The notes beneath the pieces are model-generated. The model saw only the letters and a list, made by a program, of their open reading frames with translations, had not been told where the DNA came from and did no database searches. Positions 3,656-58,403 of a DNA stretch of 64,000 bases are shown piece after piece (the stretch's first letter is position 1; each line of letters starts with the position of its first letter). The DNA lies in NCBI GenBank assembly GCA_963920705.1, contig OY987225.1, positions 15,505,492-15,569,491 of the forward strand. The letters are read 5' to 3'. A program made the translations under genes and the position numbers. This DNA is from Odiellus spinosus (lineage: Eukaryota > Arthropoda > Arachnida > Opiliones > Phalangiidae).

Positions 3656-3661
3656 TGCAGG

Positions 3662-3861: not shown

Positions 3862-5830
3862 CTAATGCTGAATAAAAATTAAAGCGTTTAATTGAGGCTT
3901 CAATCTATTCGTAATTGAGACCCTGGTACAAATCTCGAAAGACAGAGATTAACTAACCTAACCTTACCTAAGTGGAAAAACAGGGATGGGCTAGTTCAAT
4001 TGATTAACTAACCTAAACTAATCTTACCTAAAATACTACAAGAGGAACGGGTTAGCCCGAGTTATAGGGATTACCTAGTTGGAGGGATGGGCTATTTCCA
4101 GTGTTTAATTAACCTAATTTAACCTTAAAGATTACTTGATGGAATGGGTAACCCGAGGGATTAACTAGTTGGAACGATGGGCTAATCCGAGGAATTAACT
4201 AACCTAACCTAGCCTTACCTAAAATATTACAAATAGCCCGAGCTAAGGATTAACTAGTTGGAGGGATTGGCTAATTAGAGGGATTAACTAACCTAACCTC
4301 ACCTTAAAGATTACCAGATGGACAGGGGAGGTCGAGGGATTAACTAACCTAGCCTTACCTAAAATATTACAAGAGGGACGGGCTAGACCGAGCTAGAGAT
4401 TAAATTTATAATATTGAATCGCATCGACAAAAAATGACCATGGAAAGCGAAACAATTCTTTCAAGCAGCATGAGAATATAATTCTGGAGACCAGAAGTAT
4501 GTGGCCGTTTATTTAACTCGCCGACATCAATTTCCGTTTCGTATATCCTATTTAACATTCTAAATCTTTATTTTTTATTATAATTACGTTAGACGTGCTT
4601 TAGATACAGACTTCAATAATTGGCCAACTACTTAATAGCAACGTTATTTCGTAGTTGTAATGACGAAGTTATTGGATCTAAAGCACATCCTAGTCGCAAA
4701 ACTCAAGTATTTTAAAAAATAAAGTAGAGATTGAGAACGTTAAACTATAAATTTCATGTGTAATCGAGCACTTGGCAGGATATGAAGTCCAACTCGAGTG
4801 ATATTTAATCCCTAGAACTCTCATTGTGAAATGTTCTTCCAGTGACTTACTATATTATATTGGCCACATTTCTAGTTATGGCGATTTACATTCAATCGCC
4901 TCGATTTATTCGAGTACTCTACCCAAAAGATGGTGAGAAATGAGTCTCTTATCACCGAAATATAGGTGAACACGATTGCCTAAACAATCGAAGACGTCAC
5001 CATTGCACAAACGAGAGGGCTCGCCACAATTTTAAACGCTAACGCAAACCACGCATTGGTACTGTGCATCTGAGAGTACAGAATCTGCAAATCTCGTTTA
5101 TATAGGCCGAGAAGAGATATATTATTAAAGTTAAAAAATCAAATGATAAGAAAATCATGCCAACTTTTTAATTACGGTGAATTAGGGTGAATATAATGGG
5201 ATACTCATGATATGACATAATATTCAAAATTAGACGGCTGAAGAGGGCTACCCCAGTAAAAGAACCCAATAAATGCAATTTTCCGTTAACGATAAAAAAT
5301 GCTATTAAAAAAAACTTATCAACTGTTTAATAAAATCAATTTTTGTTTATCAATTTAAAGCCAATTAATAAAGCTCGGCTAGTTATATGTTTTACCCTTT
5401 TCGTCACCCATACAGGCATCTGTCTCTCTATTAACTCGAATTCGATGGATATTCATTATCATTCCACTGTTTAAGAAATAAAATTTTGTTTACCATTTTG
5501 AAGCAATTAATAAAGCTCGGCTAAGCTTATGATTTCACCCTTTTGTAACCCATTCAGGCACCTTACTTTCTATTACTTCATATACTTAATCAACATTTCA
5601 TTATTGAAATCTGTGTTTAACTAGAGATACTCTTGTACCTGATCGAAGTCTTATCAAATTTTTTCAAAAGTACCTTTGTCTGTATTAATTCGAATTCAGT
5701 GGACGGTGGGAAGAGGGAAACGACGACGACGATTTCAGTTATCAAGCGCCGCGGGTCCATTGGAAAAGACATTACGTTTTCTGATGAAATTCGAGTTTAG
5801 ATAAAGGGATAAACACGAACGTGTTTATCC
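3862..5830 (+). repeat. Repeat U, copy 1, truncated by the Gypsy-type insertion
   Basis: Non-coding repeat shared with 19301-21658, 21659-23973 and 24149-26463. From left to right it holds: a degenerate array of TAACCTAACCTTACC-type units (about 3940-4410); a unique middle; modules of about 130 bp built on AAAGCTCGGCTAA; a short CGA run (about 5722); and a terminal hairpin of GGATAAACACG, AA, CGTGTTTATCC. This copy has two 130-bp modules where the others have three. It keeps about 40 bp near 5735-5775, containing GCGCCGCGGGTCC, that copy 2 also keeps and copies 3 and 4 lack. Its left part is missing, displaced by the retrotransposon. No coding frame is seen. Confidence 0.85.
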
Positions 5831-12630: not shown

Positions 12631-12833
12631 GCATATTAGTGACCATATTAGTGAGGGACGCCTCACTAGTATGGCCCACTGAGATCGTAAACTGGAGGTT
12701 GGACCTTGATGTGAGGATGCTCGGAGGGGATTATAACAATGGGAAACATCCAATTGCCTTCAACTGTCCAGCATCGAGGCTGTAAAGTGGATGGTGGAAG
12801 GAGATAATATCCAATGGGAGAAGTCCTGTTGTA
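12631..12833 (+). repeat. Dispersed repeat C, copy 2, broken by the mariner-like insertion
   Basis: A second, more diverged copy directly after copy 1, starting at the shared ACCATATTAGTGAGGGACGCC phrase. It stops inside GTCCTGTTGTATA, where the mariner-like fold-back begins. The rest of the repeat does not resume after 14793, so the far side was lost or rearranged. Confidence 0.7.
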
Positions 12834-13051
12834 TACAGGGTGTTTCTGAAAGGTCTGGAAAAAATGAAGGGGGTTTTTCGTGGGGTCAGACTGAGTGAAA
12901 AAGGTTTATGAACATTTAGTCTCACGCGCTGTGTTGCGTAGTTATGAGCCCTTGAAAATAGTCCTCAAAAATACGAAAAACGACCGAAAGGTGTAGGTAA
13001 GGTTGTGCCTTTGACCATTATTGTTTTTCAATTTAATTGTGCATAAGCTAA

Positions 13052-13812
13052 TTATCGAGAGATAAGTGAAACAATGTGTTTATTAACTAAAAAAACGTTG
13101 ATACACACTTGAGCCCGTCTAATAAATGATTGTCTAACTCGTTCGAAGATCCCTGGTGTGTTGCGTATGGTTTCGCAGGCATCAATAATCCTTTGACGTA
13201 GATCTTCCACGTTACGCGCTTCACTAACATAAACTAAGTCCTTAAGGTGGCCCCAAAGAAAGAAGTTACAAGGCTTTAGGTCCGGAGATATGGCGGCCAC
13301 GCAACTGTTCCGCCACGACCAATCCACCTCAAAGGGAATGTTTCATTAAGGAAGGCCCTAACTAGGAGAGAAAAATGAGGTGGTGTACCGTCGGGCATAA
13401 ACCACATGTCTCGTATCCAGGCCAATGGTACGTCTTCAAGAAGCTCGAACAGATTGTCTTGAAGAAATCGGAGATATGCCTCACCATTAAGCCTTGGCTG
13501 CAAAAAGAATGGTCCAATTAAATGGTCACCAACAATTCCGCACCAGACTTTTAAGCTGAATAATTGAACTTGGTGAGCCCTAACACTTGTAGCGGGGGGG
13601 GGGGCGGTTTGTTGCGCCCACTGATGCCTGTTGTGCATGTTCAATATGCCATCACGGTAAAAATTGGCCTCATCTGTAACTAAAAGGTTTTGGGGTAAGT
13701 TGATGTCTTGATGTTGAGCGATAAACCACTGACAAGACATCAACTTACCCCAAAACCTTTTAGTTACGGATGAGGCCAATTTTTCCCGTGATGGCATATT
13801 GAACATGCACAA
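13052..13812 (-). pseudogene. Mariner-like transposase fragment, left arm
   Basis: Two overlapping frames (13812-13276 and 13327-13052) carry the catalytic half: LLVTDEANF with the first aspartate, then MPDGTPPHF and, after a frame change near 13300, a LKPCNFFLWGHLKDL stretch where other family members have SPDLNPCDFF. A run of nine G near 13600 and the frame change near 13300 mark the decay. The first 70 or so codons of the upper frame read through the spacer into the opposite arm and are not original sequence. The enzyme family cuts and pastes mariner DNA; this piece cannot. Confidence 0.85.
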
Positions 13813-14391
13813 CAGGCATCAGTGGGCGCAACAAAACCCCCACGCTACAAGTGTTAGGGCTCACCAAGTTCAATTCAGCTTAAACGTCTGGTGCGGAATT
13901 GTTGGTAACCAATTGGACCATTCATTTTGCAGCCAAGACTTAATGGTGAGGCATATCTCCGATTTCTTCAAGACAATCTGTTCGAGCTTCTTGAAGACGT
14001 ACCATTGGCCTTGAGACGAGACACGTGGTATGCGCACGACGGTGCACCATCTCATTTTTCTCTCCTAGTTAGGGCCTTCTTTAATGAAACATTCCCTTTG
14101 AGGTGGATTGGTCGTGGCGGAACGGTTGCGTGGCCAGCCAGATCTCCGGACCTAAACCCTTGTGATTTCTTTCTTTGGGGCCACCTTAAGGACTTAGTTT
14201 ATGTTAGTGAAGAGCGTGACGTGGAAGATCTACGTCAAAGAATTATTGATGCCTGTGAAACCATACGCAACACACCAGGGATCTTCGAACGAGTTAGACA
14301 ATCATTTATTAGACGGGCTCAAGTGTGTATCACCGCTGACGGAATGCATTTGAGAACAATTTTTGTAACTACTTCTGATTCCGATTATTAA
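13733..14391 (+). pseudogene. Mariner-like transposase fragment, right arm
   Basis: Mirror copy of the left-arm fragment and the better preserved of the two. The frame 13927-14391 holds HDGAPSHF and SPDLNPCDFFLWG, giving two catalytic aspartates with 36 residues between them. The first catalytic block should lie before 13870 but is disturbed, and a frame change lies near 13925. The C-terminus runs to TAA at 14391. The N-terminal half of the enzyme is absent. Confidence 0.85.
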
Positions 14392-14793
14392 CTAATTGAT
14401 AATTATGGTAATTAATAATGGTTTCTTGTAAAATTCCCTTTTCAACACCCGAAACACACGTAATAAACCACACTTTGAGTTCAAGTACTTCAGACCAAAG
14501 TTAATGATTGCACACTCCTATACATGTTGATACGCTTTTTTTTAATAAACACCTTGTTTCACTTATCTCTCGATAATTAGCTTATGCACAATTAAATTGA
14601 AAACAATAATGGTCAAAGGCACAATCTTACCTACACCTTTCGGTCGTTTTTCGTATTTTTGAAGATTATTTTCAAGGGCTCATAGCTACGCAACGCAGCG
14701 CGTGAGACTAAAGGGTCATAAACCTTTTTCACTCAGTCTGACCCCACGAAAAACCCCCTTCATTTTTTCCAGACCTTTCAGAAACACCCTGTA

Positions 14794-15229
14794 TAACCTT
14801 GGATTAATAAACTGACAACGTTTGGCATTCAGCGGGAATATCGTGAAACTCCCGTAGTTTCTATTATCAGGCTACACGTGTATTAATATATTAGGCCTAA
14901 ACACGCGGGTGACGGGGCTCTTGGGTAATGTGTTTTCTTTAACATCAGTGGAATGAAATCTACCGGTTTTTTTAATGATTATTATACCTAATTATAAATA
15001 ATTAAATATAATCTTTTTAGTATCATTGTCACAATATGGGAAGATTGAAAGGTTTTGAAATGGGTTTTGGAAATGGGAAAAATTTAAACTCTATCATTTA
15101 TTCTTTTTGAAACCATCTTGAGTCACTCTAACAACGCGGATAAGCACACCGTTTCACACCCATCTTGATTAAAAACAATTCACAGTTCGTTTTTTAAAAA
15201 TCAACGATCTTTTTGAATTTGTTGGCGCT
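14794..15229. other. No recognisable feature
   Basis: AT-rich single-copy-looking sequence between the mariner-like element and the tRNA-derived repeat. Nothing recognised. Confidence 0.35.
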
Positions 15230-16671: not shown

Positions 16672-19081
16672 AGGGTGGTGGCGGGTAATTCCGTTCACTA
16701 TGGTTTAAAAATGTGAATCTTTAGTTTGGGTGGCTCAAATTGAACGAAAATGGATTTATTTTAGACATTGATAAACGCCCCGTCAGAAAAAAATATCTCA
16801 AGGCCATTGTACAAGGTTCGGCTAAGACACGACCATAATTAAAAAAAGTAACCATTTTCTCCGATTCAATTAATGCTTTTTATGCATTGAGTTGGGAATA
16901 TATATATATATGTCTTCTATAGTTCTTGTTCCAATCTGCGCATCGCGGGGCCACTTTTTTCAATTACAATAGTTTATCATTGGGCGGTGGCGCCATCTAC
17001 CTCTAGCGACGTGAACTAGATAGTTCCCGCCGCTAGAGGTAGATGGCGCTAGCCGTAATTTTCGGGTGGAATTAAGGCGGGAAATTTGATTGATTCTCAA
17101 ACTAATATGTGAAACCTGGTGAAACACGTTTCGAATTGGCAGGTTTTTTGAAGTTAGGTCGTGTGTAAACTGAAAATAAAGTAACACTATGAGAAAAATT
17201 GTTTTTTTACGCGAATCGAAAATGAACATAATTAGCTATTTATATTGATTCGACTTAAAAATAGAAAGCACAATGGGCAATTGCATAAATTCGTGTAGAA
17301 ACAAAAACGCCTGGTGCCATAAGTACGGCCACAATACCAATTGTGAAGCATAAATTAAGGTATTTCTAAACAAATGTTAATCAAGATTCCCATTTTAAAA
17401 TTTTACGTAATTTGCGGGGAATCATTTTAATCACTCGGACAATCAGGCTGTTGCGAAAATATATTTGCAATGGGGAAATGCGATTTCTACTTTACTTTTA
17501 TCACAAACCTTAAACCTTAAAGTATATATTTCAATCGGTAAATTTAAAATTTAATTATTTACAGGAAATGTTCAATCGAGTTAACTTTGATCACAATCAG
17601 ATTTAATTGCTGGGGAAGAACAAAATGTAAATGATAATATGATTAGAATCTAATAGCGAAATAATTGAGTGACAAGTAGGACTAATTTATCGATCAAATA
17701 ATAATAATAAAAGGCTTTATTGGAGAAGGAAACTTACCCAATTGATTCTGTTCAAAATGTTAAAATGGTACGAAATTTTCCTTTTTGGATTGTTTTAAAA
17801 TAAAATTTTAATGTGTAAGGGAAAATTCAGAATATTTAAAACATTAGAACTAATCTTAAAACTTATTCCGTGTGAGAGACTCATTTGTTCACGTAAGCTT
17901 TGAATGCAAAGATTATATTGTTTAAGAATCAATCAAATTTCCCGCTAAAAATGACACTCTAAAGCTGCTGAAAGCGCCATCTGACTCTAGCGGTGGAAAC
18001 TATAAATTTCCTGCGGCTAAATGTAGATGGCGCCACCGACTAATGATAAAGATGTCCGTCCGTATTATGTTTTCAGAGCAGGCCCCGCAAAACCTCCCTT
18101 GCCGAACGGCAAATGATAACTCTAGAAGATATATATATATTCCCAACTCAATGTTTTTATGGCTCCGGAAATAAGGATTAATACCAATCGCGGAAATTGC
18201 ACAAATACGAACCCGATACCACTCGAAAACAGATCAACAGCTACAAAATACGCGTCTCCAGTCTCATCTAGACGCCGTATTTAATTATTTATCGAATATT
18301 AGAAAAAGCTACCGGCAGAGTCGAATTACATACACTCGAAACAACGTCGAGTTGACAGTTTATTAAATTCAAAATACCTTATTAAACTCGAATTTGCGGA
18401 CTTGAAAATCATTGACGATTGACATTTCCATAATTTCAAAGCAGAAAGCCTGTTTTTCCCGCTTTTCTCCGCAGTCTTTCAGGGCTGGAAATGTTTATAA
18501 CGCGAATTCAGTATTTAGGGTGGTAGTGTTTTAAAACAATACTTTAAAAAGGCTTAGAACATAATATAGCGCGGTTTTGGACTGTAAAAATGGAAAATGC
18601 TCGTGTGGGTGTTTTAGTCGCCTTTGAAACCGAATAAAATATTAAGAATTTAATATTTAAAGCTCAATTTTGTTATAATTTTTTTTTGTAATAAAAAACG
18701 CGCAATTTGAAATTAAATTTTGGTAGCTTTTAACTTTTACAATGGTTGTTTTTATTCAGATAGAACACATAGTTAAATATTTTGGGTACAGAGAACATTT
18801 TACTCTTTATTCCGTGACGGGTGGACGGGTATTACCCGCCATTGGTCGGAATTAGACTCAGGCCGGACGGAATTACACTCTTCAGGACAGAATTAGCTGC
18901 GTCTACTGACTTTGAAACACGTATCGTATCTTTTAGACCAGTTAAAGCTGTAGAAAGCAAAGTAGGTTTAAATACGCGCAAAAATTCAATTATAAAAAGA
19001 TTTACCTAAATTGGACACAGTTAACATTGGGAGAGTTTTCTTAATGCTTTTATAAAAAGCGGCCAGAATTACCCGCCACCA
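16672..19081. mobile_element. Element D with GGTGGCGGGTAATTC inverted ends, inserted in repeat A
   Basis: It begins GGGTGGTGGCGGGTAATTCCG and ends in the inverse, GAATTACCCGCCACCACC, exactly where uninterrupted repeat A copies read straight through. Flanking TA on both sides may be the target duplication. A partial copy lies at 58615-58984. More GGGTAATTC-like words occur near 18840-18900. No coding frame is evident. A second transposon (16885-18153) sits inside, so the original length was about 1.13 kb. Confidence 0.7.
16885..18153. mobile_element. DNA transposon with 8-bp target duplication (hAT or P-like), nested in element D
   Basis: Its ends are CATTGAGTTGGGAATATATA and the inverse, flanked on both sides by TTTTTATG (16877-16884 and 18154-18161). 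The related element D copy near 58845 has no insertion at this point. Long imperfect inverted stretches continue inside: 16915-17100 pairs with 17920-18130, including GCGCCATCTAC / GTAGATGGCGC hairpins. A short frame from 17273 starts MGNCINSCRNK, which faintly recalls the start of a THAP zinc finger but stops after 26 codons. Eight-base duplications fit hAT and P superfamilies. With no transposase it is non-autonomous. Confidence 0.8.
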
Positions 19082-19300: not shown

Positions 19301-21658
19301 GGATAAACACGTTCGTGTTTATCCCTTTATCTGAACTCGAATTTCATCAGAAACCGTAATGTCTTTTCCAATGGACCCGCGGCGCTTGATAACTGAAAGC
19401 GTCGTCGTCGTCGTCGTCGTCGTTTCCCTCTTCCCACCGTCCACTGAATTCGAATTAATACAGACAAAGGTACTTTTGAAAAAATTTGATAAGACTTCGA
19501 TCAGGTACAAGAGTATCTCTAGTTAAACACAGATTTCAATAATGAAATGTTGATTAAGTATACGAAGTAATAGAAAGTAAGGCACCTGAATGGGTTACAA
19601 AAGGGTGAAATCTTAAGCTTAGCCGAGCTTTACTAATTGCTTCAAAATGAATAAACAAAAATTTTATTTCTTAAACAGTAGAATGATAAGGAATATCCAT
19701 CGAATTCGAGTTAATAGAAAGTAAGGCGCCTGAATGGGTTACAAAAGGGTGAAATCATAAGCTTAGCCGAGCTTTATTAATTGCTTCAAAATGGTAAACA
19801 AAATTTTATTTCTTAAACAGTAGAATGATAATGAATATCCATCGAATTCGAGTTAATAGAGAGACAGATGCCTGTATGGGTGACGAAAAGGGTAAAACAT
19901 ATAACTAGCCGAGCTTTATTAATTGGCTTTAAATTGATAAACAAAAATTGATTTTATTAAACAGTTGATAAGTTTTTTTTAATGGCATTTTTTATCGTTA
20001 ACGGAATATTGCATTTATTGGGTTCTTTTACTAGGGTAGCCCTCTTCAGCCGTCTAATTTTGACTATTATGTCATATCATGAGTATCCCATTATATTCAC
20101 CCTAATTCACCGTAATTAAAAAGTTGGAATGATCATTTGATTTTTTAACTTTAATAATATATCTCTTCTCGGCCTATATAAACGAGATTTGCATATTCAG
20201 TACTCACAGATGCACTGTACCAATGCGTGGTTTACGTTAGCGTTTAAAATTGTGGCGAGCCCTCTCGTTTGTGCAATGGTGACGTCTTCGATTGTGTAGG
20301 CAATCGTTTCTCACCTATATTTCGGTGAAAAGAGACTCATTTCTCACGATCTTTTGGGTAGAGTACTCGAATAAACCGAAGCGATTGAATGTAAATCGCC
20401 TTACCTAGAAATGTGGCCAATATAATATAGTAAGTCACTGTAAAAACATTTCACAATGAGAGTTCTAGGGATTAAATATCACTCGAGTTGGACTTCATAT
20501 CCTGCCAAGTGCTCGATTACACATGAAATTTATAGTTTAACGTTTTCAATCTCTACTTTATTTTTTAAAATACTTGAGTTTTGCGACTAGGATGTGCTTT
20601 AGATCCACATTACAACTACGTAATAACGTTGCTATTAAGTAGTTGACCAATTATTGAAGTCTGTATCTAAATCACGTCTAACTCAATTATAATAAAAAAT
20701 AAAGATTTAGAATTTTAAATAGGATATACGAAACGGAAATTGATGTCGGCGAGTTAAATAAACGGCCACATACTTCTGGTCTCCAGAATTATGTTCTCAT
20801 GCTGCTTTAAAGAATTGTTTCGCTTTCCATGCTCATTTTTTGTCGATGCGATTCAATATTATAAATTTAATCTCTAGCTCGGTCTAGCCCGTCCCTCTTG
20901 TAATATTTTAGGTAAGGCTAGGTTAGTTAATCCCTCGACCTCCCCCGTCCATCTGGTAATCTTTAAGGTGAGGTTAGGTTAGTTAATCCCTCTAATTAGC
21001 CAATCCTTCCAACTAGTTAATCCTTAGCTCGGGCTATTTGTAATATTTTAGGTAAGGCTAGGTTAGGTTAGTTAATTCCTCGAATTAGCCCATCGTTCCA
21101 ACTAGTTAATCCCTCGGGTTATCCATTCCATCAAGTAATCTTTAAGGTTAAATTAGGTTAATTAAACACTGGAAATAGCCCATCCCTCCAACTAGGTAAT
21201 CCCTATAACTCGGGCTAACCCGTTCCTCTTGTAGTATTTTAGGTAAGATTAGTTTAGGTTAGTTAATCAATTGAACTAGCCCATCCCTGTTTTACAACTT
21301 AGGTAAGGTTAGGTTAGTTAATCTCTGCCTTTCGAGATTTGTACCAGGGTCTCAATTACGAATAGATTGAAGCCTCAATTAAACGCTTTAATTTTTATTC
21401 AGCATTAGTAAGAATTAAAGTTCAATAAACCTATAAAGCAAAATAGTGAAATGTGGAAAAGGTGTATATTTTTGGAGAAAAAAGGACATAAATTATACAA
21501 AAAAGAGGTTGCTTCGCACCCTTAAAAAAACTCTTTATCTGACTCGAATCAAACCCGTGAAGGGACAGAAATTATTTGTTAGAGAAAGAGCAATTTCATA
21601 TCTTTAAAATTATAGTTAGTAGATTTAGTCTACTACTTCAAAGATTTTATTACTATTA
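19301..21658 (-). repeat. Repeat U, copy 2 (inverted relative to copy 1)
   Basis: A complete unit read on the minus strand, from TAATAGTAATAAAATC at 21658 to the hairpin GGATAAACACG / CGTGTTTATCC at 19301. It shares with copy 1 the GCGCCGCGGGTCC stretch (near 19375) that copies 3 and 4 lack, and has a longer CGA/TCG run. It abuts copy 3 head to tail with no spacer, so copies 2 and 3 form a tandem pair. Copies 1 and 2 face each other across 13.5 kb. No coding frame. Confidence 0.85.
20175..20201 (+). promoter_or_regulatory. Possible core promoter inside repeat U (copy 2; also 22485-22511 in copy 3)
   Basis: TATATAAA at 20175-20182 is followed by TCAGT at 20197-20201, the arthropod initiator word. 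TATA to initiator is 24 bases, shorter than the usual 30 or so. The pair is kept in copy 3 and, inverted, in copies 1 and 4, though copy 1 reads TCTGT for TCAGT. Transcription would run away from the terminal hairpin. This is a motif-level inference only. Confidence 0.3.
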
Positions 21659-23973
21659 GGATAAACACGTTCGTGTTTATCCCTTTATCTAAACTCGAAT
21701 TTCATCAGAAACTGAAATCGTCGTCGTCGTCGTCGTTTCCCTCTTCCCACCGTCCACTGAATTCGAATTAATACAGACAAAGGTACTTTTGAAAAAATTT
21801 GATAAGACTTCGTTCGGGTACAAGAGTATCTCTAGTTAAACACAGATTTCAATAATGAAATGTTGATTAAGTATACGAAGTAATAGAAAGTAAGGTGCCT
21901 GAATGGGTTGCAAAAGGGTGAGATCTAAAGCTTAGCCGAGCTTTACTAATTGCTTCAAAATGATAAACAAAAATTTTATTTCTTAAACAGTAGATTGATA
22001 AGGAATATCCATCGAATTCGAGTTAATAGAAAGAAAGGTGCCTGGATGGGTTACAAAAGGGTGAAATCATAAGCTTAGCCGAGCTTTATTAATTGCTTCA
22101 AAATGGTAAACAATTTTTTTTTTCTTAAACAGTAGAATGATAATGAATATCCATCGAATTCGAGTTAATAGAGAGACAGATGGCTGTATGGGTGACGAAA
22201 AGGGTAAAACATATAAGTAGCCGAGCTTTATTAATTGGCTTTAAATTGATAAACAAAAATTGATTTTATTAAACAGTTGATAAGCTTTTTTTAATGGCAT
22301 TTTTTATCGTTAACGGAAAATTGCATTTATTGGGTTCTTTTACTAGGGTAGCCCTCTTCAGCCGTCTAATTTTGACTATTATGTCATATCATGAGTATCC
22401 CATTATATTCACCCTAATTAAAAAGTTGGCATGATTTTCTTATCATTTGATTTTTTAACTTTAATAATACATCTCTTCTCGGCCTATATAAACGAGATTT
22501 GCAGATTCAGTACCCACAGATGCACCGTACCAATGGGGGGTTTAAGTTAGCGTTTAAAATTGTGGCGAACCCTCTCGTTTGTGCAATGGTGACGTCTTTG
22601 ATTGTTTAGGCAATCGTTTCTTACCTATATTTCGGTGATAGGAGACCTATTTCTCACGATCTTTTGGGTAGAGTACTCGAATAAAGCGAGGCGATTGAAT
22701 GTAAATCTCATTACCTAGAAATGTGGCCAATTTAATATTTAGTCACTGTAAAAACATTTCACAATGAGAGTTCTAGGGATTAAATTTCACTTGAGTTGGA
22801 CTTCATATCCTGCCAAGTGCTCGATTACACATGAAATTTATAGTTTAACGTTCTCAATCTCTACTCTATTTTTTTAAAATACTTGAGTTTTGCGACTAGT
22901 ATGTGCTTTAGATCCAATAGCTTCGTCATTACTACTACGTAATAACGTTGCTATTAAGTAGTTGGCCAATTATTGAAGTCTGTATCTAAAGCACGTCTAA
23001 CTTAAGTATAATAAAAAATAAAGATTTAGAATGTTAAATAGGATGTACGAAACGGAAATTGATGTCGGCGAGTTAAATAAACAGCCACATACTTCTGGTC
23101 TCCTGAATTATGTTCTCTTGCTTTAAAGAATTGTTTCGCTTTCCATGCTCATATTTTGTCGATGCGATTCAATATTATAAATTTAATCTCTAGCTCGGTC
23201 TAGCCCGTCCCTCTTGTAATATTTTAGGTAAGGCTAGGTTAGTTAATCCCTCGACCTCCCCCGTCCATCTGGTAATCTTTAAGGTGAGGTTTGGTTAGTT
23301 AATCCCTCTAATTAGCCAATCCCTCCAACTAGTTAATCCTTAGCTCGGGCTATTTGTATTATTTTAGGTAAGGCTAGGTTAGGTTTATTAATTCCTCGAA
23401 TTAGCCCATCGTTCCAACTAGTTAATCCCTCGGGTTACCCATTCCATCAAGTAATCTTTAAGGTTAAATTAGGTTAATTAAACCCTGGAAAAACCCATCC
23501 CTCCAACTAGGTAATCCCTATAACTCGGGCTAACCCGTTCCTCTTGTAGTATTTTAGGTAAGATTAGTTTAGGTTAGTTAATCAATTGAACTAGCCCATC
23601 CCTGTTTTACAACTTAGGTAAGGTTAGGTTAGTTAATCTCTGCCTTTCGAGATTTGTACCAGGGTCTCAATTACGAATAGATTGAAGCCTCAATTAAACG
23701 CTTTAATTTTTATTCAGCATTAGTAAGTATTAAGGTTCAATAAACCTATAAAGCAAAATAGTGAAATGTGGAAAAGGTGTATATTTTTGGTGAAAAAAGG
23801 ACAGAAATTATACAAAAAAGAGGTTGCTTCGCACCCTTAAAAAAACTCTTTATCTAACTCGAATCAAACCCGTGAAGGGACAGAAATTATTTGTTAGAGA
23901 AAGAGCAATTTCATATCTTTAAAATTATAGTTAGTAGGTTTAGTCTACTACTTCAAAGATTTTATTACTATTA
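21659..23973 (-). repeat. Repeat U, copy 3 (left arm of the palindrome)
   Basis: Complete unit of about 2,315 bp in the same orientation as copy 2 and a near-perfect inverted match of copy 4. It carries three 130-bp AAAGCTCGGCTAA modules (about 21890-22240) and the AGGTTAGTTAATCC-type array (about 23190-23640). It has a small TCG run near 21718. No coding frame. Confidence 0.9.
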
Positions 23974-24148
23974 TATATTTTCCAAAAAACGGATAAAGAC
24001 GACCTAGTTAAACTTCCTCTCCCATTGATGTTAATTTTAAATTATATCAGTATCACTAATAAAATTAGCTAAAGATGGAGTTCCTTTAATGTATATATAT
24101 ATTTATCATTAGTCCTAGGTCGTCTTTATCCGTTTTTTGGAAAATATA

Positions 24149-26463
24149 TAATAGTAATAAAATCTTTGAAGTAGTAGACTAAACCTACTAACTATAATTT
24201 TAAAGATATGAAATTGCTCTTTCTCTAACAAATAATTTCTGTCCCTTCACGGGTTTGATTCGAGTTAGATAAAGAGTTTTTTTAAGGGTGCGAAGCAACC
24301 TCTTTTTTGTATAATTTCTGTCCTTTTTTCACCAAAAATATACACCTTTTCCACATTTCACTATTTTGCTTTATAGGTTTATTGAACCTTAATACTTACT
24401 AATGCTGAATAAAAATTAAAGCGTTTAATTGAGGCTTCAATCTATTCGTAATTGAGACCCTGGTACAAATCTCGAAAGGCAGAGATTAACTAACCTAACC
24501 TTACCTAAGTTGTAAAACAGGGATGGGCTAGTTCAATTGATTAACTAACCTAAACTAATCTTACCTAAAATACTACAAGAGGAACGGGTTAGCCCGAGTT
24601 ATAGGGATTACCTAGTTGGAGGGATGGGTTTTTCCAGGGTTTAATTAACCTAATTTAACCTTAAAGATTACTTGATGGAATGGGTAACCCGAGGGATTAA
24701 CTAGTTGGAACGATGGGCTAATTCGAGGAATTAATAAACCTAACCTAGCCTTACCTAAAATAATACAAATAGCCCGAGCTAAGGATTAACTAGTTGGAGG
24801 GATTGGCTAATTAGAGGGATTAACTAACCAAACCTCACCTTAAAGATTACCAGATGGACGGGGGAGGTCGAGGGATTAACTAACCTAGCCTTACCTAAAA
24901 TATTACAAGAGGGACGGGCTAGACCGAGCTAGAGATTAAATTTATAATATTGAATCGCATCGACAAAATATGAGCATGGAAAGCGAAACAATTCTTTAAA
25001 GCAAGAGAACATAATTCAGGAGACCAGAAGTATGTGGCTGTTTATTTAACTCGCCGACATCAATTTCCGTTTCGTACATCCTATTTAACATTCTAAATCT
25101 TTATTTTTTATTATACTTAAGTTAGACGTGCTTTAGATACAGACTTCAATAATTGGCCAACTACTTAATAGCAACGTTATTACGTAGTAGTAATGACGAA
25201 GCTATTGGATCTAAAGCACATACTAGTCGCAAAACTCAAGTATTTTAAAAAAATAGAGTAGAGATTGAGAACGTTAAACTATAAATTTCATGTGTAATCG
25301 AGCACTTGGCAGGATATGAAGTCCAACTCAAGTGAAATTTAATCCCTAGAACTCTCATTGTGAAATGTTTTTACAGTGACTAAATATTAAATTGGCCACA
25401 TTTCTAGGTAATGAGATTTACATTCAATCGCCTCGCTTTATTCGAGTACTCTACCCAAAAGATCGTGAGAAATAGGTCTCCTATCACCGAAATATAGGTA
25501 AGAAACGATTGCCTAAACAATCAAAGACGTCACCATTGCACAAACGAGAGGGTTCGCCACAATTTTAAACGCTAACTTAAACCCCCCATTGGTACGGTGC
25601 ATCTGTGGGTACTGAATCTGCAAATCTCGTTTATATAGGCCGAGAAGAGATGTATTATTAAAGTTAAAAAATCAAATGATAAGAAAATCATGCCAACTTT
25701 TTAATTAGGGTGAATATAATGGGATACTCATGATATGACATAATAGTCAAAATTAGACGGCTGAAGAGGGCTACCCTAGTAAAAGAACCCAATAAATGCA
25801 ATTTTCCGTTAACGATAAAAAATGCCATTAAAAAAAGCTTATCAACTGTTTAATAAAATCAATTTTTGTTTATCAATTTAAAGCCAATTAATAAAGCTCG
25901 GCTACTTATATGTTTTACCCTTTTCGTCACCCATACAGCCATCTGTCTCTCTATTAACTCGAATTCGATGGATATTCATTATCATTCTACTGTTTAAGAA
26001 AAAAAAAATTGTTTACCATTTTGAAGCAATTAATAAAGCTCGGCTAAGCTTATGATTTCACCCTTTTGTAACCCATCCAGGCACCTTTCTTTCTATTAAC
26101 TCGAATTCGATGGATATTCCTTATCAATCTACTGTTTAAGAAATAAAATTTTTGTTTATCATTTTGAAGCAATTAGTAAAGCTCGGCTAAGCTTTAGATC
26201 TCACCCTTTTGCAACCCATTCAGGCACCTTACTTTCTATTACTTCGTATACTTAATCAACATTTCATTATTGAAATCTGTGTTTAACTAGAGATACTCTT
26301 GTACCCGAACGAAGTCTTATCAAATTTTTTCAAAAGTACCTTTGTCTGTATTAATTCGAATTCAGTGGACGGTGGGAAGAGGGAAACGACGACGACGACG
26401 ACGATTTCAGTTTCTGATGAAATTCGAGTTTAGATAAAGGGATAAACACGAACGTGTTTATCC
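24149..26463 (+). repeat. Repeat U, copy 4 (right arm of the palindrome)
   Basis: Complete U unit on the plus strand, the inverse of copy 3. It ends at the GGATAAACACG / CGTGTTTATCC hairpin. It is followed directly by the start of another U (26464-26630), so U units join head to tail here as at 21658/21659. Confidence 0.9.
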
Positions 26464-26884
26464 TAATAGTAATAAAATCTTTGAAGTAGTAGACTAAATC
26501 TACTAACTATAATTTTAAAGATATGAAATTGCTCTTTCTCTAACAAATAATTTCTGTCCCTTCACGGGTTTGATTCGAGTACGATAAAGAGTTTTTTTAA
26601 GGGTGCGAAGCAACCTCTTTTTTGTATAATTACGTATGGATTGAAGCTCATTTAAACGCTATAATTTTTATTCAGCATTAGTAAGAATTAAGATTCAAAA
26701 TAGTGAAATTGCGAAAAGATGTATATTTTTGGTAAAAAAGGGACAGAAATTATACAAGAAATTAGTTGTTAGAGAAAGAGCAATTAAATATGTTTAAAAT
26801 TATAGTTAGTAGATTTAGTCTACTACTCCAAAGATTTTATTATTATTAAATATTTCCCAAAAAACGGATAAAAGGTGACCTAGG
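26464..26884. repeat. Two partial U fragments, tail to tail
   Basis: 26464-26630 is the first 167 bases of a U unit on the plus strand. At 26631 it switches to a more diverged U fragment on the minus strand (26631-26884) that runs out through CCAAAAAACGGATAAA and GACCTAGG, the same tip seen at the palindrome centre. Five A residues then separate it from CCTAGGTCGTCTT, so a small version of the same head-to-head junction is present. Confidence 0.75.
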
Positions 26885-30339: not shown

Positions 30340-31303
30340 AAAACCCCTCTCAGATCTCACAGTCAAGATGCGGAATGGCATTCGATACACTTCGTGAAAA
30401 ATTAACATCATCACCCATCCTGGCTCTTCCGATATTCCACGAACCTTTTGAAATACACACCGACGCCACCGCATAAGGGATAGGGGCGATCCTCAACAAA
30501 AACGCCTAGGAAGAGAACAGGTCGTCGGCTAAGCGAGCCGTCTCCTGAACAAAGCCAAACAAAACTTTAGTCCCACCGAGAGCGATTGCCTTGCCAAAGT
30601 ATACGGTACGCAAAAATTCCGACCGTACCTTTATGGACGGCCCTTCAAATTTGTCACGGAACATCATGCATTATGCTGGGTTAAATCTATTCGCAACCCG
30701 AACGGGCGTTTAGCCCAGTGGGCCATCCAATTGCAGGAATTTGACGCTATCATAACCCACAAAGATGGCAAAAAACATATGGTTGCTGACGCTATATCTC
30801 TAGCGCCCCTGGACAAAGCTCCACGCGACGAGGTTTCTCTATTAGTGACTACCGTCAATCGCGCCGATACAATAATTCAGCTTCGTCATTTCGATATCCC
30901 GCTACTTCAGAGAAAGGATGCATTACTCGGCCCTATTATCCTACACTTTGAGAATGGCCAAATTCTAAACTACGCTGCTAAACCATACCAAATGCTCGGA
31001 AATATACATCGGAAAGTAAAAACTAACGACGTTTTCCACCTCGTACTGGCCGCTTCAAAGGAAATACGTTCTTTAATTTTGAAAGCCCTTCATGATGATG
31101 CCACATCAGGCCACGTAGGGTTTCGCCGCACCTGGGAACGTGTAGGACAGTGCTTCTTGGGGCCAAAAATACATCTCGACACAGCGTTACGGGATATTCC
31201 CCGTTTTACCTCTTACAAGATATTGTATCGGCGGAACGCTAAAAACCTTATACTTCCAGCGAAAACTTCGAGAAACAGGTTCACATTAACATCACTTCAG
31301 TGA
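30340..31303 (+). pseudogene. Decayed Ty3/Gypsy pol fragment (RNase H to integrase zinc finger)
   Basis: Plus-strand remnant with several stops in its first half. PIFHEPFEIHTDATA (about 30433-30472) is the start of RNase H. The open part 30731-31303 gives THKDGKKHMVADAIS, the RNase H end, and ATSGHVGFRRTWERV, the histidine-bearing integrase zinc-finger region. It differs clearly from the element at 1-3861, so it is another lineage. Continuation beyond 31303 (31307-31607) is open in short frames with no clear domain. No LTRs were identified. Confidence 0.8.
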
Positions 31304-36398: not shown

Positions 36399-36436
36399 TT
36401 CTGACCCGAGGGGTCCGACATTCCCAAAAAAAAAGC

Positions 36437-36640
36437 GTACGGGATTTCGTGATTTCACCAAAGATTTCGGGATTTTGGGATTTCGCCAAAGATTTCGGGA
36501 TTTCGGGATTTCGCCAAAGATTTCGAGATTTCGCGATTTCGCGATTTCGCTTCAAAGATTTCGGGATTTCACGATTTCACTTCAAAGATTTCGGGATTTC
36601 GCGATTTCGCTTCAAAGATTTCGTGATTTCAAATATTTGG
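36437..36640 (+). repeat. Left subterminal GATTTCG array
   Basis: Irregular tandem copies of GATTTCGGGATTTCGCCAAA and GATTTCGCTTCAAA starting after AGCGTACGGGATTTCGTG. The open frames across it (36352-36744, 36392-36892 and the minus-strand frame) read as repeating FRDF/DFGISRF motifs and are products of the array. Confidence 0.85.
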
Positions 36641-37151
36641 TATTTCATAATTTTTTCAAATGTTCAAAACCTTCCTTTAGCCTTCGTCGTTCTCTCAAAT
36701 ATTTTGTCATTTCGTCCATATTTCGTGATTTTTTGTTTGAATAGTTCAATTAGAACGATCTACAAGATTACAGAAAACACGAGCAATTATCTTATAGTAG
36801 TCTACGCCTTAGCTCCAAGAATAGCTCTCTCTGAGAATCAGATGACGCTGGGGAGTAAAATTGAACGACTAGTACCACCAACTTCAAGATAGGCCTCATA
36901 ATTTCTCTTAAAATATGAAAATTTTCTATTGTTAAAACAGTCATTTGAAAACATCTAATTAACAGCTATATACGAGTTAAACTTCTGATGAAGTTTTAAA
37001 CTTTCAGTAAGACTAATTAGACGCAATTATTCGAGCAATTAGTTTATTGTTACAAAAATTCGTTTAAAAATACAAAAATTGATGTTCATTTTTCTAGACG
37101 CAACGTTTATACCGAAATTTATACAGCGTTATACAGTTAAATCCCTTTTTT

Positions 37152-40100
37152 TTATTCAGTCTTAATATCTTTGGATACATTTTCATTTAAAAAAAATCTT
37201 TCATTATCATAACGTAAGCAATTTTCCGGAACAGTACAAAAATACTTTTTCAAATCACAATATCCATGGCTAAAAGCGTTGCACAATTTTAAGTGGGTGA
37301 TTTCCTTGGTGATTTCACCTTTCGTGACCTCTGTTTCATACCAATTACAAAGACCACCTATTTCTTTGGCATCTCTAATATTTGCATATGTTCCAGAATA
37401 ACTTCGGCTAGTGGCGCTCTTCCCAGTCAAATACGAAAATTGTAAAACTCTCCCGATGAGATATTTTTCTTGATATTTGAAGGCGCATAGGTCACCAACG
37501 TTCACAGAATCAGACTTGAAAGGTTTAATAGAATTTTCGTCGGGTTTTTTAGTTTGGTTAGAATGGCGTTATGCCTAACTCGTTTAGGCGATCATTAAAC
37601 AGTGGCTCGTTTGAGTTTAGTAGCCACAATGCGGTTTTCTTTCTTCACCAGTCTTGGTATATTCAGTGAATGGCGAATTACCTTCCAGTTACTTCCCAGT
37701 TTGTTTCCATTTTTTGTCTTGAATCATATATTGTGGAAGGCCACTGCCAAATGAATTACACTTTTTAACTAATTTTACATTATTTTTGACGCATGAATTA
37801 GAAATATTTCCTAAATCCTCCACAAGACCAAAAATATTATGAGTGCTCGTTTCATCTTGTTCTGACGTGGCATTGGCCTCGTAATTACAATTATCTTCCT
37901 CGTCGTCGGAATGTTCCAGAAGTTTTGGATGTTTAAAACTAGATGGTTTCGCATTATTCTTCAACACGCTACACATAATTTCCTCATCCGTCGCTTCAAC
38001 AAAGTCAGTCATTCCTAATGACGAGATGCTTTCAATGGCCCTTGACCTAGCTGTTTGAACGGCATGGCTTATTTCTGAAACGCTGGGTATGTTTAAACGA
38101 TGGGTATCAACTTGTGATGGGCAACGATCACCATCTTTCTTTTGTCCGGGCTTGAACGTCAAGTCGATGAATTGGGTTTAAAAATTCAAGAAGAGAAAAA
38201 TTTGTAACAGTAGAAAATACTGATGTCAGGTTACGAGCAGATCTGAATAGTTTTTCACATTGCTGTGAACCAGTTAAATGAGGGTATAGATAACTTTGGC
38301 AATCATCGGTGGTTATGGACTGTTCAATAAGGCTGTGAGCATTAATTTCAATGCAAGTATAACAGTTAAGATTAATAAAATTATCTTTAAGGGTGTAAAA
38401 CTCCGACTTTTCTATCCAAAGCTTCCAAAAGCATAGAACAAATACGGCGCACCATATTGCTTCTATTCTTTCGATTAGAGGTTCTTCTTTATTCAAATAG
38501 GATGTGGTAATTACTCTCATGATTTTCAAGTATAATGCTGTACCTTTACTGTTAGGGATTTTATCCAGCATGAGCTTCTCGATGGTAGGAGAAGAAAGAC
38601 GTTCTACGGCTGCAAAATTTTGCTTGTCTTTTGGGTTTAGATCACTATCTTTTAGTCCATGAACCGCTTTCTAAAATTTTATCGCTAGCATTTTTAGATG
38701 TGATATTGAGCACACTTCATTACCCATTAGTAACACGATAGAATCTTTCAGAAACCTACATCTTAATTTCGTTCCTATATGGACGTGGTCTTGGATGTAA
38801 AACGGTGGATTCAAGCAAACGTTATAAAACCATGTCCAAGCATCAGGAATGGACAAGTTTCTTGTATTCTTATTAAAAATTTGGCTTTCGTTAACCATAG
38901 CCTTAAGTAGCCTTGGATCCCCGTCACTTGAAAACGACGAGACTTTGATTCCAACCTTTAAACATTCAGCAGTTATATGTTTCCATCTTTGGGACACGTC
39001 CATGTTTGAAAACCGGTTGTCGGATCCCATAACGCTTAAACAAAACGGGGGCGTGTTTGGATGAAGTGGTTGAGCCATGTAGACATATGCAATACTGGCT
39101 TTGGAATTATTTTCGAAATACATCTCCACTGTTTCGTAGGACGTAAAGGTCATGGAATTCACATCCGGAAATCCGTGTTTATTTAGCGGCCGCACAAATC
39201 CTATACAGGTATTAGTACCTTGGTCATAATCATTTCTCGTTAAAATTCGTGTTCCGTCTTCACTGATGGAGACACACTTGTGAGGTACTTTGTAACGCAT
39301 CATATGTTCTACTAATTGAATTGTACGTATATCACCTTCTTTGACTGGCTTTCTTTCCTCAAAAAGATACCGTTGTACTTGACGCAAGCAAGGTAAAGCT
39401 TTTGGCGTATTTTGGGCGACAAAATTATACGCCAGAGATCCAGAAAATATGAAAAATGCTGTGCTGAATTTTTTAACAGAATCAGAATGTCTGCTTGTTT
39501 TGCATGGCAGTTCTCCCACAGGTTCTGAAGAAATCCGCCGATTTTGGTTCTTTGGTTTGGATGTAAGGAATCGCTTCTCTTCAAATTTGATTCTAAGTCA
39601 TTGAATATAATTGCGTTATCTTTCCAAGGCTTTCAATTTTCTTTATTACTAGGAAGAACGCTTCAATTTTGGTTTGTGAAGGATCTGATGAAGCAGCAAT
39701 CAACTTGCGTCTCTTGCGTTCCGTTCTTGAATAATTATAATTGTTATTTTTTCTTTTAAAATTTGACGAATTAATTGAATTTAATTCTGGAGTTTCTCCA
39801 AAACCTCCCTTCCTAGTGGCTTCTATGGAAGGGAGACTGTTTAAAAATCCTGGGATGTTGTGGTTGTGCTACTTGCCGACCCTTTTGTAGTAGAATCCGC
39901 CGATCCAAGATAATCGTCCTCCAAATTTCCAGGATAGCTAACATCACCTATTTCAACCAAATTTATCACAGTAGATTGCGAGGTAGGTTGCAATTGCACT
40001 TAACTGATTGTGGTGCTGTTTTTTTTAGTTTGCATCTCATTTTTTTGGAAACTTTCCTCCGTTAGTTTTATTGTAGCAATTTTTGTTTTTTGCTTGACGT

Positions 40101-40798
40101 TGGGGCTTGGGAACATTTTTCCACATGCCTATAATAATTGGACGCACTGTATCCCAACCTGGCTTTAATTTTACTCAAGGATATTCTGACACTGCAATCC
40201 AAGCAACCACACGAAAATTTCCATCTGGGGAAATGGACCCTGGCAATATTTGGTAATTTACGCCTTCTTTCAAATTCGAGACCATATAGCCGATTCAGAA
40301 CATTCCTTACGTTTTTCAATTTGTTCTCGAAGTCCCTGAATAATGTCAGTTTCATTCTTTTTATCGTAGCCTGATTTAGTGAAACTCGTAGCCGGCTTTG
40401 TCGAGGTTTTTAGTTACATGAGAGTTGACATCGGATTTACTAACACGTCTGAGGAGCTTGGATGATAAGGTTGTTTTAGGTACATCAGTTACGTTTTTAG
40501 CGTAAGCCATTATCTTGTGAACATGACCAGGTAAAAAACTAAATTTAGTTTTGTTGTTATAATATGGCCCATACATTACTACAGCTTCTTTTTCATCGAA
40601 AACTTCTGAGTTTTGGCTAATAAACTCTTCAAGTTTTTGGATTGAATCTAGTTCCTCCAGTTTCTTAACAGAATCATAGGAATCATAACCGGTATTTATG
40701 AGGCATGTAAATATTTGAGCAGGAAGTTCTTCTTTCATAGAAAGCACAAAACGTTCTTGGGCCGTTTTCTCTAAGCTTACCTCAATTTCATCCATCAT
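37152..40798 (-). pseudogene. Decayed transposase of the 5.27-kb element, unassigned family
   Basis: Minus-strand pieces in order: 40798-40376, N-terminal region of 140 codons; 40355-40068, a BED-like zinc finger (CGCLDC, then NYYRHVEKC); 39519-38671, probable catalytic core with CVSISEDG, VSSFSSDGDPRLLKAM and DHVHIGTKLR; an in-frame TAG near 38670, then 38571-38128 with GSQQCEKLFRSARN and NFSLLEFL; a frame change near 38145; 38162-37689, an acidic tail; and 37505-37152, a separate C-terminal domain. Two D in -(S)EDG/SDGD- and the E in CEKLFR could be the metal-binding triad (inference). Gaps could include introns, but the TAG and frame change suggest decay. Confidence 0.7.
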
Positions 40799-41283
40799 TT
40801 GAGTTACTGAAGGTAAGCTTAAGTAATAGAAAAAAAAAAAGATTCTCAGCGCACAAAGTAAACAAAATTAATCTTATAAATTACCTCAAATACTTTACCT
40901 TTACTTTGGGTTATTATTAAAATAAAAACGAGTTACATTTAAACATTGGATATTTCGTTTTGTATTTGAGATTCTTTGTTTGGAAATATATTTAAGGTCT
41001 ATTTGCCACGTTTTTCAGAACAACGACTTACCTTCAACGCGTTCCCCCAAGAAATAAAAATATTCCTTGGTTCCCACACTTCTCTCCATCAGTTCCCACA
41101 CTTCTCGACCGTTCTCGACCCTTCCCTACCCATTTTGGAACAGGCTCATCTAATTTTTCTAATATCTTTTCCTCTCCCTACCCGTAACGGCTGTACTCCC
41201 ACTATGTGAGGAAAGGGGGGGATAGAAAAAAGAAGGGGTCAGAATAATAACAAACATTATACTGAGGAAGGACACTAACAGAG

Positions 41284-41660
41284 AATTCGTGATGTCGTCG
41301 GAGATTTCGGGATTTCGCGATTTCGCTTCAAAGATTTCGTGATTTCGCCAAAGATTTCGAGAGTTCGTCGGAGATTTCACGATTTCGACGGAGATTTCGC
41401 GATTTCGTCGGAGATTTCGCGATTTCGTCCGAGATTTCGGGATTTCATCCGAGATTTCGGGATTTCGTCCGAGATTTCGGGATTTCAACGGAGATTTCGT
41501 GATTTCGTCCGAGATTTCGGGATTTCGTCCGAGATTTCGGGATTTCAACGGAGTTTTCGGGATTTCGTCCGAGATTTCGGGATTTCGCGATTTCTTCAAA
41601 GATTTCGGGATTTTGTGCGGAAGATTTCACGATTTCGCGAGAAGCGTACGGGATTTCGTG
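41284..41660 (+). repeat. Right subterminal GATTTCG array
   Basis: Tandem copies of a 20-base unit GATTTCGTCCGAGATTTCGG with variants, ending at AGCGTACGGGATTTCGTG just inside the right end. It runs in the same direction as the left array. Frames 41159-41599 (minus), 41339-41710 (plus) and 41445-41738 (minus) are products of this repeat. Confidence 0.85.
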
Positions 41661-41686
41661 TAAATGTCGGATCCCTCGTTCTGACC

Positions 41687-56620: not shown

Positions 56621-57017
56621 ATTTCTAAGTGACCTTTTCTGGGATAAGAAATACAAACGTTTAACGCGAAAACGACTGCTTTAACCCCTTAACTCGGATA
56701 CACTTGAATCTCGATAAAACTGCCAAATTAACAAGAGTATAGCAAATTTTTTATATCATCAACTGATAATTCTGAAATCTACGATTATTTTTGGATAGGT
56801 TCATAAGCGATTTCGTTTTGTGGTTTCTCTTTTCTTAACGATGGTAATATAAGATCTATGTATAACTTACCGAGAACGCTAGGTTCTTATAAATGTACTT
56901 TAAATAATAATCATATTCGTTTTTGATTACACGTAGAAAATTTCATATTTAAAGCAAAAAAGCTTTTTGTAAAAAAATTATAATGTTATCCAATGCTTTT
57001 ATATTTTTTCATAGATA

Positions 57018-58403
57018 ATGAATCAAATTGCGAAGACCATCAAGCTGTTAAACTTTTATAAAAAAATATATTACTATAAAAATCGAAGGACTTGTACGTC
57101 ACAATGTTTGGCCGCTACAATACTAGCGTTTATTTTTGGATTCGTCCTTGGAGTCCTTTTACCCTTATACCTATTTACAAGCACCACTCTTTCTTTCGAC
57201 ACCAATATCCGTGGATTCATCATTTTAAACCGAGCTAATAGGCCTGATGGAGAACCCACAAAGTTAATGTCGCCCCTTAATATTATTATTAACACTTCTT
57301 ATATATTTTCGGTAGAATTCCCCCAAAAAAACGATATTGAGTACAAAGGAACTTCCCTCGATACTTTGGTTAAGAAACGGACAAACTACGCTTTAAACAA
57401 CAAACCGAATAATATAGTTCCCAACAACGGAATATTTTGGTCGGCAGAAATCGAACGACAATTACCGTGCGGTTTTGATGAAAAGTCTTTGCGTGATTGG
57501 AGATATTTTGTGAACCATAGTGCTATCGTGAAAGTCGAGGAAGGCTGCGGTCGCATGCAAAATAGGAGAGTCACCTTTGACGACGGTGTTAGAGCGTGTT
57601 CTCGATATCGTCAGAATAACGATCAAATACAGGGTGAAATATTTTCGTTTTACCTAGCGCGACTGCTTGGAATTCAAAACTTACCTCCAATGACTGTGGG
57701 AATGGTACGAGGGAATGAATGGCAATGGGAATTCGTTCGATCCTACATCGAAATGGCCCGATGGAATGCCGATAGACCTATTGTTTTAACTCAGTTCGTC
57801 GATAAACTAACTCCCTCGTATATTCCGGGAGTGTTTCGTAATTCGTCTAGACGTTTACATCCTTACGTTCGAGATCTATATGGAAAAACGAAACTTGAAA
57901 TACTCGAATTGGTTCAGTGGTCCGACTTGATCGTGTTCGACTATTTAACGGCTAATCTTGATCGCGTTGTGAACAACATGTATAACGAACAATGGAACTC
58001 TGAAATGATGTCGAGCCCGGCACATAATTTAGCGAAAAGCGAAAGCACTGGACTGCTTGTTTTTCTCGATAACGAGTCGGGTTTGTTGCACGGTTACCGA
58101 CTCTTGGACAAGTACGAGAGTTATCACTTATCGCTATTAAAGTCATTGTGCGTTTTTAAATACTCTACCGTTCGCGCGCTAGAAACTCTCCGTAATAAGA
58201 GTAACGTCTCTTATCTTTTAAAAGAAATGTTCGAAAAAATATCTCCACGAGTAAGGGATTGGTTGCCATACATTCCGGATAGGTATTTAAAAATACTGAG
58301 TGAAAGGATAAAAACGGTTTATCGACACGTTTTAGACTGTCACAAGCGTTACGGGAGTGGAGATATTCTTGGATTTCCAAGAGAATATAAGCTTAAAGAT
58401 TAA
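57018..58403 (+). CDS. fj: Four-jointed Golgi kinase (Fj/FJX1)
   Basis: Intact single-exon frame of 461 codons. Short basic N-terminus, then one membrane anchor at about residues 31-53, then a lumenal domain: a type II Golgi protein. In Drosophila, Fj phosphorylates Ser/Thr in cadherin domains of Fat and Dachsous, tuning their binding in planar polarity and Hippo growth control. Family marks seen are GIFWSAEIERQLPCGF (about 138-153), FDYLTANLDR with D315, and the catalytic metal-binding D351-N352-E353 in FLDNESG. Several N-glycosylation sites occur. Length lies near human FJX1 and below Drosophila Fj. The ATG chosen is the first in frame and leaves a normal short cytoplasmic tail. Confidence 0.95.
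   Translation: MNQIAKTIKLLNFYKKIYYYKNRRTCTSQCLAATILAFIFGFVLGVLLPLYLFTSTTLSFDTNIRGFIILNRANRPDGEPTKLMSPLNIIINTSYIFSVEFPQKNDIEYKGTSLDTLVKKRTNYALNNKPNNIVPNNGIFWSAEIERQLPCGFDEKSLRDWRYFVNHSAIVKVEEGCGRMQNRRVTFDDGVRACSRYRQNNDQIQGEIFSFYLARLLGIQNLPPMTVGMVRGNEWQWEFVRSYIEMARWNADRPIVLTQFVDKLTPSYIPGVFRNSSRRLHPYVRDLYGKTKLEILELVQWSDLIVFDYLTANLDRVVNNMYNEQWNSEMMSSPAHNLAKSESTGLLVFLDNESGLLHGYRLLDKYESYHLSLLKSLCVFKYSTVRALETLRNKSNVSYLLKEMFEKISPRVRDWLPYIPDRYLKILSERIKTVYRHVLDCHKRYGSGDILGFPREYKLKD

What the first reader, a model, noticed from the sequence alone, without database searches (positions are those of the whole stretch)
36407..41678. A structurally complete DNA transposon that I cannot assign to a superfamily
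Seen: exact 8-bp duplication TTCTGACC, 16-bp inverted ends CGAGGG(G/A)TCCGACATT, a GATTTCG array inside each end, and one minus-strand gene between. Known: 8-bp duplications occur in hAT, P and KDZ groups, and BED fingers are common in hAT. Inference: the core has acidic motifs in SEDG and SSDGD contexts, DHVHIG, and CEKLFRSARN, which do not match hAT signatures I know, so this may be a little-described lineage. The separate C-terminal domain (37505-37152) is also unfamiliar.
Basis: partly seen in the sequence, partly recalled or inferred. Interest (0 to 1): 0.8.

Follow-up and report, generated by a model that had tools for sequence, protein, structure and literature searches.

The report
Broken, distant P-element-like DNA transposon
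It is a dead copy of a jumping gene from a little-described animal branch of the fruit fly P-element group, which keeps the P-type cutting enzyme but seems to use a different DNA-binding finger, so it helps define what that group really shares.

Summary
A 5,272-bp element at 36407-41678 has an exact 8-bp duplication, 16-bp inverted ends (15/16), CGTACG 29-30 bases inside each end, and GATTTCG arrays that point the same way at both ends. The gene is broken: one coding region, 40798 to 37155, needs 11 pieces in changing frames plus two in-frame stops. The gaps are frameshifts, not introns.
It differs from known P elements. No THAP domain was found in 91 relatives, 54 of which reach at least 100 residues before the core. 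Instead there is a finger that looks BED-like, with the same pattern in 10 of 18 long relatives, and a conserved C-terminal domain (13 of 91). Verdict: a THAP-less variant of the P superfamily. Other copies in this genome could not be checked.

The parts
36399..36406 (+). target-site duplication TTCTGACC, left
41679..41686 (+). target-site duplication TTCTGACC, right
36407..36422 (+). left terminal inverted repeat CGAGGGGTCCGACATT
   Evidence: no continued match between the ends after 16 bp
41663..41678 (-). right terminal inverted repeat CGAGGGATCCGACATT (one mismatch to the left)
36436..36441 (.). palindrome CGTACG, element bases 30-35 from the left end; candidate internal site (inference)
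   Evidence: 8 CGTACG in the window, 2 of them in the element
41645..41650 (.). palindrome CGTACG, element bases 29-34 from the right end; candidate internal site (inference)
36440..36647 (+). left subterminal array, 15 GATTTCG, 28-30 bp higher-order unit
41303..41658 (+). right subterminal array, 26 GATTTCG, 20-bp unit (TRF 41311-41587), same orientation as the left array
37155..40798 (-). decayed transposase gene, one coding region in 11 read-through pieces
40382..40798 (-). N-terminal domain; only sub-threshold matches to unrelated Pfam families; 10 of 91 relatives match at E<=1e-3
40080..40277 (-). finger that looks BED-like (C-x2-C ... SNYYRH-x3-C); the Pfam BED model itself does not match
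38128..39519 (-). catalytic core (463 aa, one in-frame TAG): HTH, split RNase H, helical insertion
39358..39483 (-). helix-turn-helix region (core residues 13-54)
   Evidence: (PF12017, E 0.047, below cut-off)
39256..39258 (-). first catalytic Asp (predicted), core D88, in strand 82-91
38923..38925 (-). second catalytic Asp (predicted), core D199, directly after strand 192-198
38779..38790 (-). D(2)H motif, core D244/H247, directly after strand 240-243
38266..38790 (-). mostly helical insertion domain, core 244-418, at the place of the P-element GTP-binding domain
38254..38256 (-). catalytic Glu (predicted), core E422, in helix 419-430
37155..37550 (-). C-terminal domain, no Pfam match; 13 of 91 relatives match at E<=1e-3, among them sponge P0011 and beetle P0019

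Best explanation
The element is a dead copy of a cut-and-paste DNA transposon of the P superfamily, in a lineage in which no THAP domain was found. When intact, its roughly 1,200-residue transposase would have bound the ends with a BED-like finger and a helix-turn-helix (inferred). It would have cut the 16-bp ends with a split RNase H domain carrying D88, D199 and E422 and a helical insertion, and joined them to target strands 8 bp apart. The 8-bp spacing is shown by the duplication; cutting and joining are inferred from the fold and the conserved residues. After insertion the gene decayed by frameshifts and stops.
Against: The window's own protein gives no Pfam match above cut-off (PF12017 14.5 bits against 23; none for the whole core at E<=10). 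The family profile did not find P transposase in the PDB by sequence. PF12017 is not in the list for the 56 members of A3. No THAP domain was found in 91 relatives. The 16-bp ends are unlike the 31-bp P repeat in length, and the arrays are direct, not inverted. D201 (87 of 91) is a second candidate for the middle acid.
Confidence: 0.82

Rival explanations
1. A divergent hAT element: BED-like finger plus 8-bp duplications.
For: 8-bp duplication; BED-like finger pattern; Hermes is a significant but weak Foldseek match (4.2e-4). A survey places P and hAT transposases in one clade of RNase H-like proteins (PMC3985635, passages seen).
Confidence: 0.03
2. A separate superfamily (KDZ-like or new) that only shares the P/hAT/Transib-type fold.
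For: Identity to P transposase is 14% in the structural alignment; the architecture outside the core is different. No KDZ sequence or structure was compared.
Confidence: 0.12
3. The reading frames are exons of a spliced, intact gene.
For: The P-element gene is itself spliced from four frames; several frames here are long and open.
Against: Pieces overlap or lie within about 10 bases of each other, leaving no room for introns; codon preference switches frame at those points; there is an in-frame TAG inside the conserved core.
Confidence: 0.04
4. Frameshifts are assembly errors and the element is alive.
For: No reads were available to check; the window holds a perfect 2.5-kb inverted repeat, which may be an artefact.
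Against: The four-jointed gene in the same window is an open 462-codon frame and a retroelement frame of 507 codons is open, so errors would have to fall mainly on this element.
Confidence: 0.08

Closest known systems
Drosophila P element transposase (PDB 6p5a/6pe2) and vertebrate THAP9
   Same: 8-bp duplication; helix-turn-helix, split RNase H with a helical insertion between strand 5 and helix 4; D, D, D(2)H, E signature
   Different: No THAP domain found in the relatives; finger that looks BED-like; longer protein with an extra C-terminal domain; 16-bp ends against 31 bp (P) and 13 bp (zebrafish); direct arrays of GATTTCG instead of 11-12 bp subterminal inverted repeats (P and zebrafish)
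Uncharacterised proteins P0003, P0011 (Amphimedon), P0024 (Coccinella), P0019 (Phaedon), P0007
   Same: Core 39-44% identical; P0024 and P0007 have the finger pattern; P0003, P0011 and P0019 share the C-terminal domain
   Different: P0002, P0003, P0006, P0010, P0011 and P0015 carry PHD fingers and P0002 and P0011 also Ulp1-type C48 by the precomputed Pfam; no such match in the window pieces
Hermes (hAT), HzTransib, RAG1
   Same: RNase H fold with an insertion; hAT also has 8-bp duplications and BED fingers (hAT duplication length recalled)

Membership tests
P superfamily (catalytic core) | 8-bp target-site duplication | tested here: met
   one copy only
P superfamily (catalytic core) | Signature string D (strand 1), D (strand 4), [C/D](2)H after strand 5, E (helix 4) | tested here: met
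   definition from PMC8230255, passages seen. D199 follows rather than lies in its strand in the model, as reported there for zebrafish
P superfamily (catalytic core) | Fold of P transposase core with helical insertion between strand 5 and helix 4 | tested here: met
P superfamily (catalytic core) | P-type helix-turn-helix, PF12017 | tested here: inconclusive
   window 14.5 bits, below the cut-off of 23; 11 of 36 A1 members match at E<=0.01; not in the list for the 56 A3 members
P superfamily (catalytic core) | GTP as cofactor | not testable with these tools
   P contact D528 is three residues before E531; the residue three before E422 here is Gln in 90/90 ungapped rows, so the site may differ; other contacts were not mapped
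THAP-type P elements (P, Galileo, THAP9) | N-terminal THAP domain | tested here: not met
   THAP absent from the Pfam lists (E<=0.01) of 91 relatives, of which 54 have at least 100 residues before the core; none in the window's N-terminal frames
hAT superfamily | hAT C-terminal dimerisation domain | tested here: not met
   absent from the lists of 92 members; no such match in the window pieces
hAT superfamily | RNase H core closest to Hermes among solved structures | tested here: not met
KDZ | KDZ-type transposase domain | tested here: inconclusive
   no KDZ-named model in the Pfam lists, but no KDZ sequence or structure was compared

The most novel reading that the evidence does not exclude
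This is one copy of an ancient THAP-less sister lineage of P elements, present from sponges to arthropods. It binds its ends with a BED-like finger and direct subterminal arrays, has members that gained chromatin-type domains (PHD, Ulp1-type), and may not use GTP as P does, because the P contact Asp528 is replaced by an invariant Gln.
Probability: 0.3. Interest if true: 0.62.

Novelty: new variant of a known kind. Interest (0 to 1): 0.42.

Why it matters
P elements are best known from flies, with a THAP finger and a GTP cofactor. A broad animal lineage with the same catalytic core but another DNA-binding module separates what is essential to the P mechanism from what is lineage-specific. It also makes the GTP requirement testable in a natural variant, and gives annotators a name for many 'uncharacterized' animal proteins.

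Tried and rejected
Single-sequence structure of the core was useless (pLDDT 35). The first protein search with the 308-residue frame found nothing (228 candidates, none at E<=0.01), probably because its length limit (539 residues) shut out the relatives, the shortest of which has 578. Sequence searches of the PDB gave no P transposase. IMG/VR and GTDB contigs gave no confirmed relative (4 and 10 pattern matches), so no second element with ends was obtained. The viral fold library gave one match at E<=0.001, a hAT-like Pandoravirus protein. The alternative frame across 40277-40080 (without the finger) matched 0 of 91 relatives at E<=1, while the finger frame matched 2 at E<=1e-3 and its Cys/His pattern is present in 10 of 18 relatives with at least 250 residues before the core (0 or 1 of 91 rows in each of 20 shuffles; the pattern was written after seeing some of these relatives). 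Against the BED label: the window finger has no Pfam match, and no BED model is in the Pfam lists of the relatives, so 'BED-like' rests on the pattern alone. I could not map the P GTP contacts other than D528. The tree (87 of 92 rows, those covering at least 75% of the core) splits 15 rows from 72 (support 99/91). The 15 are the window row, P0090 and a 13-row group that holds the sponge and the PHD-bearing proteins, joined at an open fork; the 72 hold all named insects. The root is a midpoint, so I draw no order from it. Nine literature searches (listings only) listed no paper that I recognised as describing a THAP-less, BED-finger P lineage; subscription papers and Repbase reports are not held, so it may be described there.

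Full report
What is there. The ends are as described: TTCTGACC on both sides, a 16-bp inverted repeat with one mismatch, and no continued match between the two ends beyond 16 bp. Two features are added. A palindrome, CGTACG, sits 30 and 29 bases in from the left and right ends. The GATTTCG arrays (15 copies left, 26 right) run in the same direction at both ends, with 0 copies of the reverse complement in the element (unit lengths). [quoted passage not shown] equating CGTACG or the arrays with them is inference.

The chance control. The end pattern, searched with up to 3 mismatches, matches the window twice, both times with none; shuffles average 0.53 matches of up to 3 mismatches, and 8 of 100 reach two. 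A search for any 8-bp direct repeat next to a 15-of-16 inverted repeat (0.5-15 kb apart) found 46 pairs in the window. Of the 45 others, 41 have a palindromic 8-mer, which arises wherever a long inverted duplication contains a palindrome; the window has 74 inverted repeats of at least 60 bases (25 shown). Ten Markov sequences gave none.

The gene is broken. Translating all frames shows coding-like stretches that follow each other closely. A codon-preference scan, trained on parts of the same gene, moves between frames at least seven times. My read-through used 11 pieces and crosses two in-frame stops, one of them a TAG in the conserved core. The pieces overlap or lie within about 10 bases of each other, so there is no room for introns. 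The four-jointed frame at 57015-58400 in the same window is open over 462 codons, which speaks against poor sequence quality in general. I therefore read this as a dead copy. The last joints (about 37.7-37.55 kb) are the least certain.

The active site. The P signature string is a catalytic D, D, E triad plus a [C/D](2)H motif right after strand 5, with the first D in strand 1, the second in strand 4 and the E in helix 4 (PMC8230255, passages seen). In the family, D88 is in 88 of 88 ungapped rows and lies in the strand 82-91. D199 is in 90 of 91 and follows the strand 192-198. D244 and H247 are in 91 of 91 and follow the strand 240-243. E422 is in 90 of 90 and lies in the helix 419-430. D201, in 87 of 91, is a second candidate for the middle acid. 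Between D244 and E422 lies a mostly helical insertion of 175 residues, where P has its GTP-binding domain (residues 339-528). P binds GTP through D528 and other residues (PMC7776569, passage seen). D528 is three residues before the catalytic E531; here that place is Gln in 90 of 90 rows. If no gap falls between them, GTP contacts differ. This is inference.

Sequence models agree in part of the family. At E<=0.01, PF12017 (P-type helix-turn-helix) matches 11 of 36 members and PF21787 (P-type RNase H) 5 of 36 in A1, and PF21787 8 of 56 in A3, with no PF12017 there. Of nine members scanned singly, six exceed a curated cut-off of one of these models. The window itself gives only a sub-threshold PF12017 match (14.5 bits against 23), and the longer core gives none.

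Architecture. No THAP or hAT dimerisation domain appears among the matches of the 92 scanned members. Many relatives are fragments: 54 of 91 have at least 100 residues before the core and 18 at least 250, so the THAP test is real for those only. A Cys pair followed by SN-x-H-x-H/C is found before the core in 10 of the 18 long relatives. The Pfam BED model itself matches neither the window nor relatives. The N-terminal domain is shared by 10 of 91 and the C-terminal domain by 13 of 91 at E<=1e-3; with so many fragments these are lower bounds. Some relatives, the sponge protein among them, carry PHD fingers and Ulp1-type C48 domains further on.

Host. 799 proteins match the four-jointed protein; of the 120 listed, the best eight are all from horseshoe crabs, at 58-61% identity over 67-69% of the query. 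The host is an arthropod and probably a chelicerate (inference). I did not identify the species.

Judgement. It works like, and by its core belongs to, the P superfamily, but it is not a THAP-type P element. The claim that it cannot be assigned no longer holds. I found no description of the lineage in the papers I could search (listings), but Repbase is not held.

Noticed in passing
window 21491-24007 and 24115-26631: Perfect inverted repeat with 2,517-nt arms, 100% complementary, 107 nt apart, with related copies at 3861-5732 and 19405-21409; either a very recent palindrome or an assembly artefact.
   Followed up: no
window 12832-14795: Inverted pair of transposase-like fragments (frames 13279-13818 minus and 13909-14388 plus, arms 94-96% complementary); mariner-like by eye (recalled), no Pfam match at E<=0.01.
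   Followed up: partly
window 57015-58400: Open single-frame four-jointed-like kinase gene (Fam20C), closest to horseshoe crab proteins.
   Followed up: yes
window 640-3670 and 30533-31300: Reverse-transcriptase, RNase H, protease and integrase-type frames of LTR-type retroelements.
   Followed up: partly
window 16885-18153: 8-bp direct repeat TTTTTATG flanking exact 16-bp inverted ends CATTGAGTTGGGAATA: candidate small non-autonomous transposon.
   Followed up: no
P0080 (Phaedon), residues 40-451: A ubiquitin hydrolase (UCH) match upstream of the P-like core; capture or a merged gene prediction.
   Followed up: no
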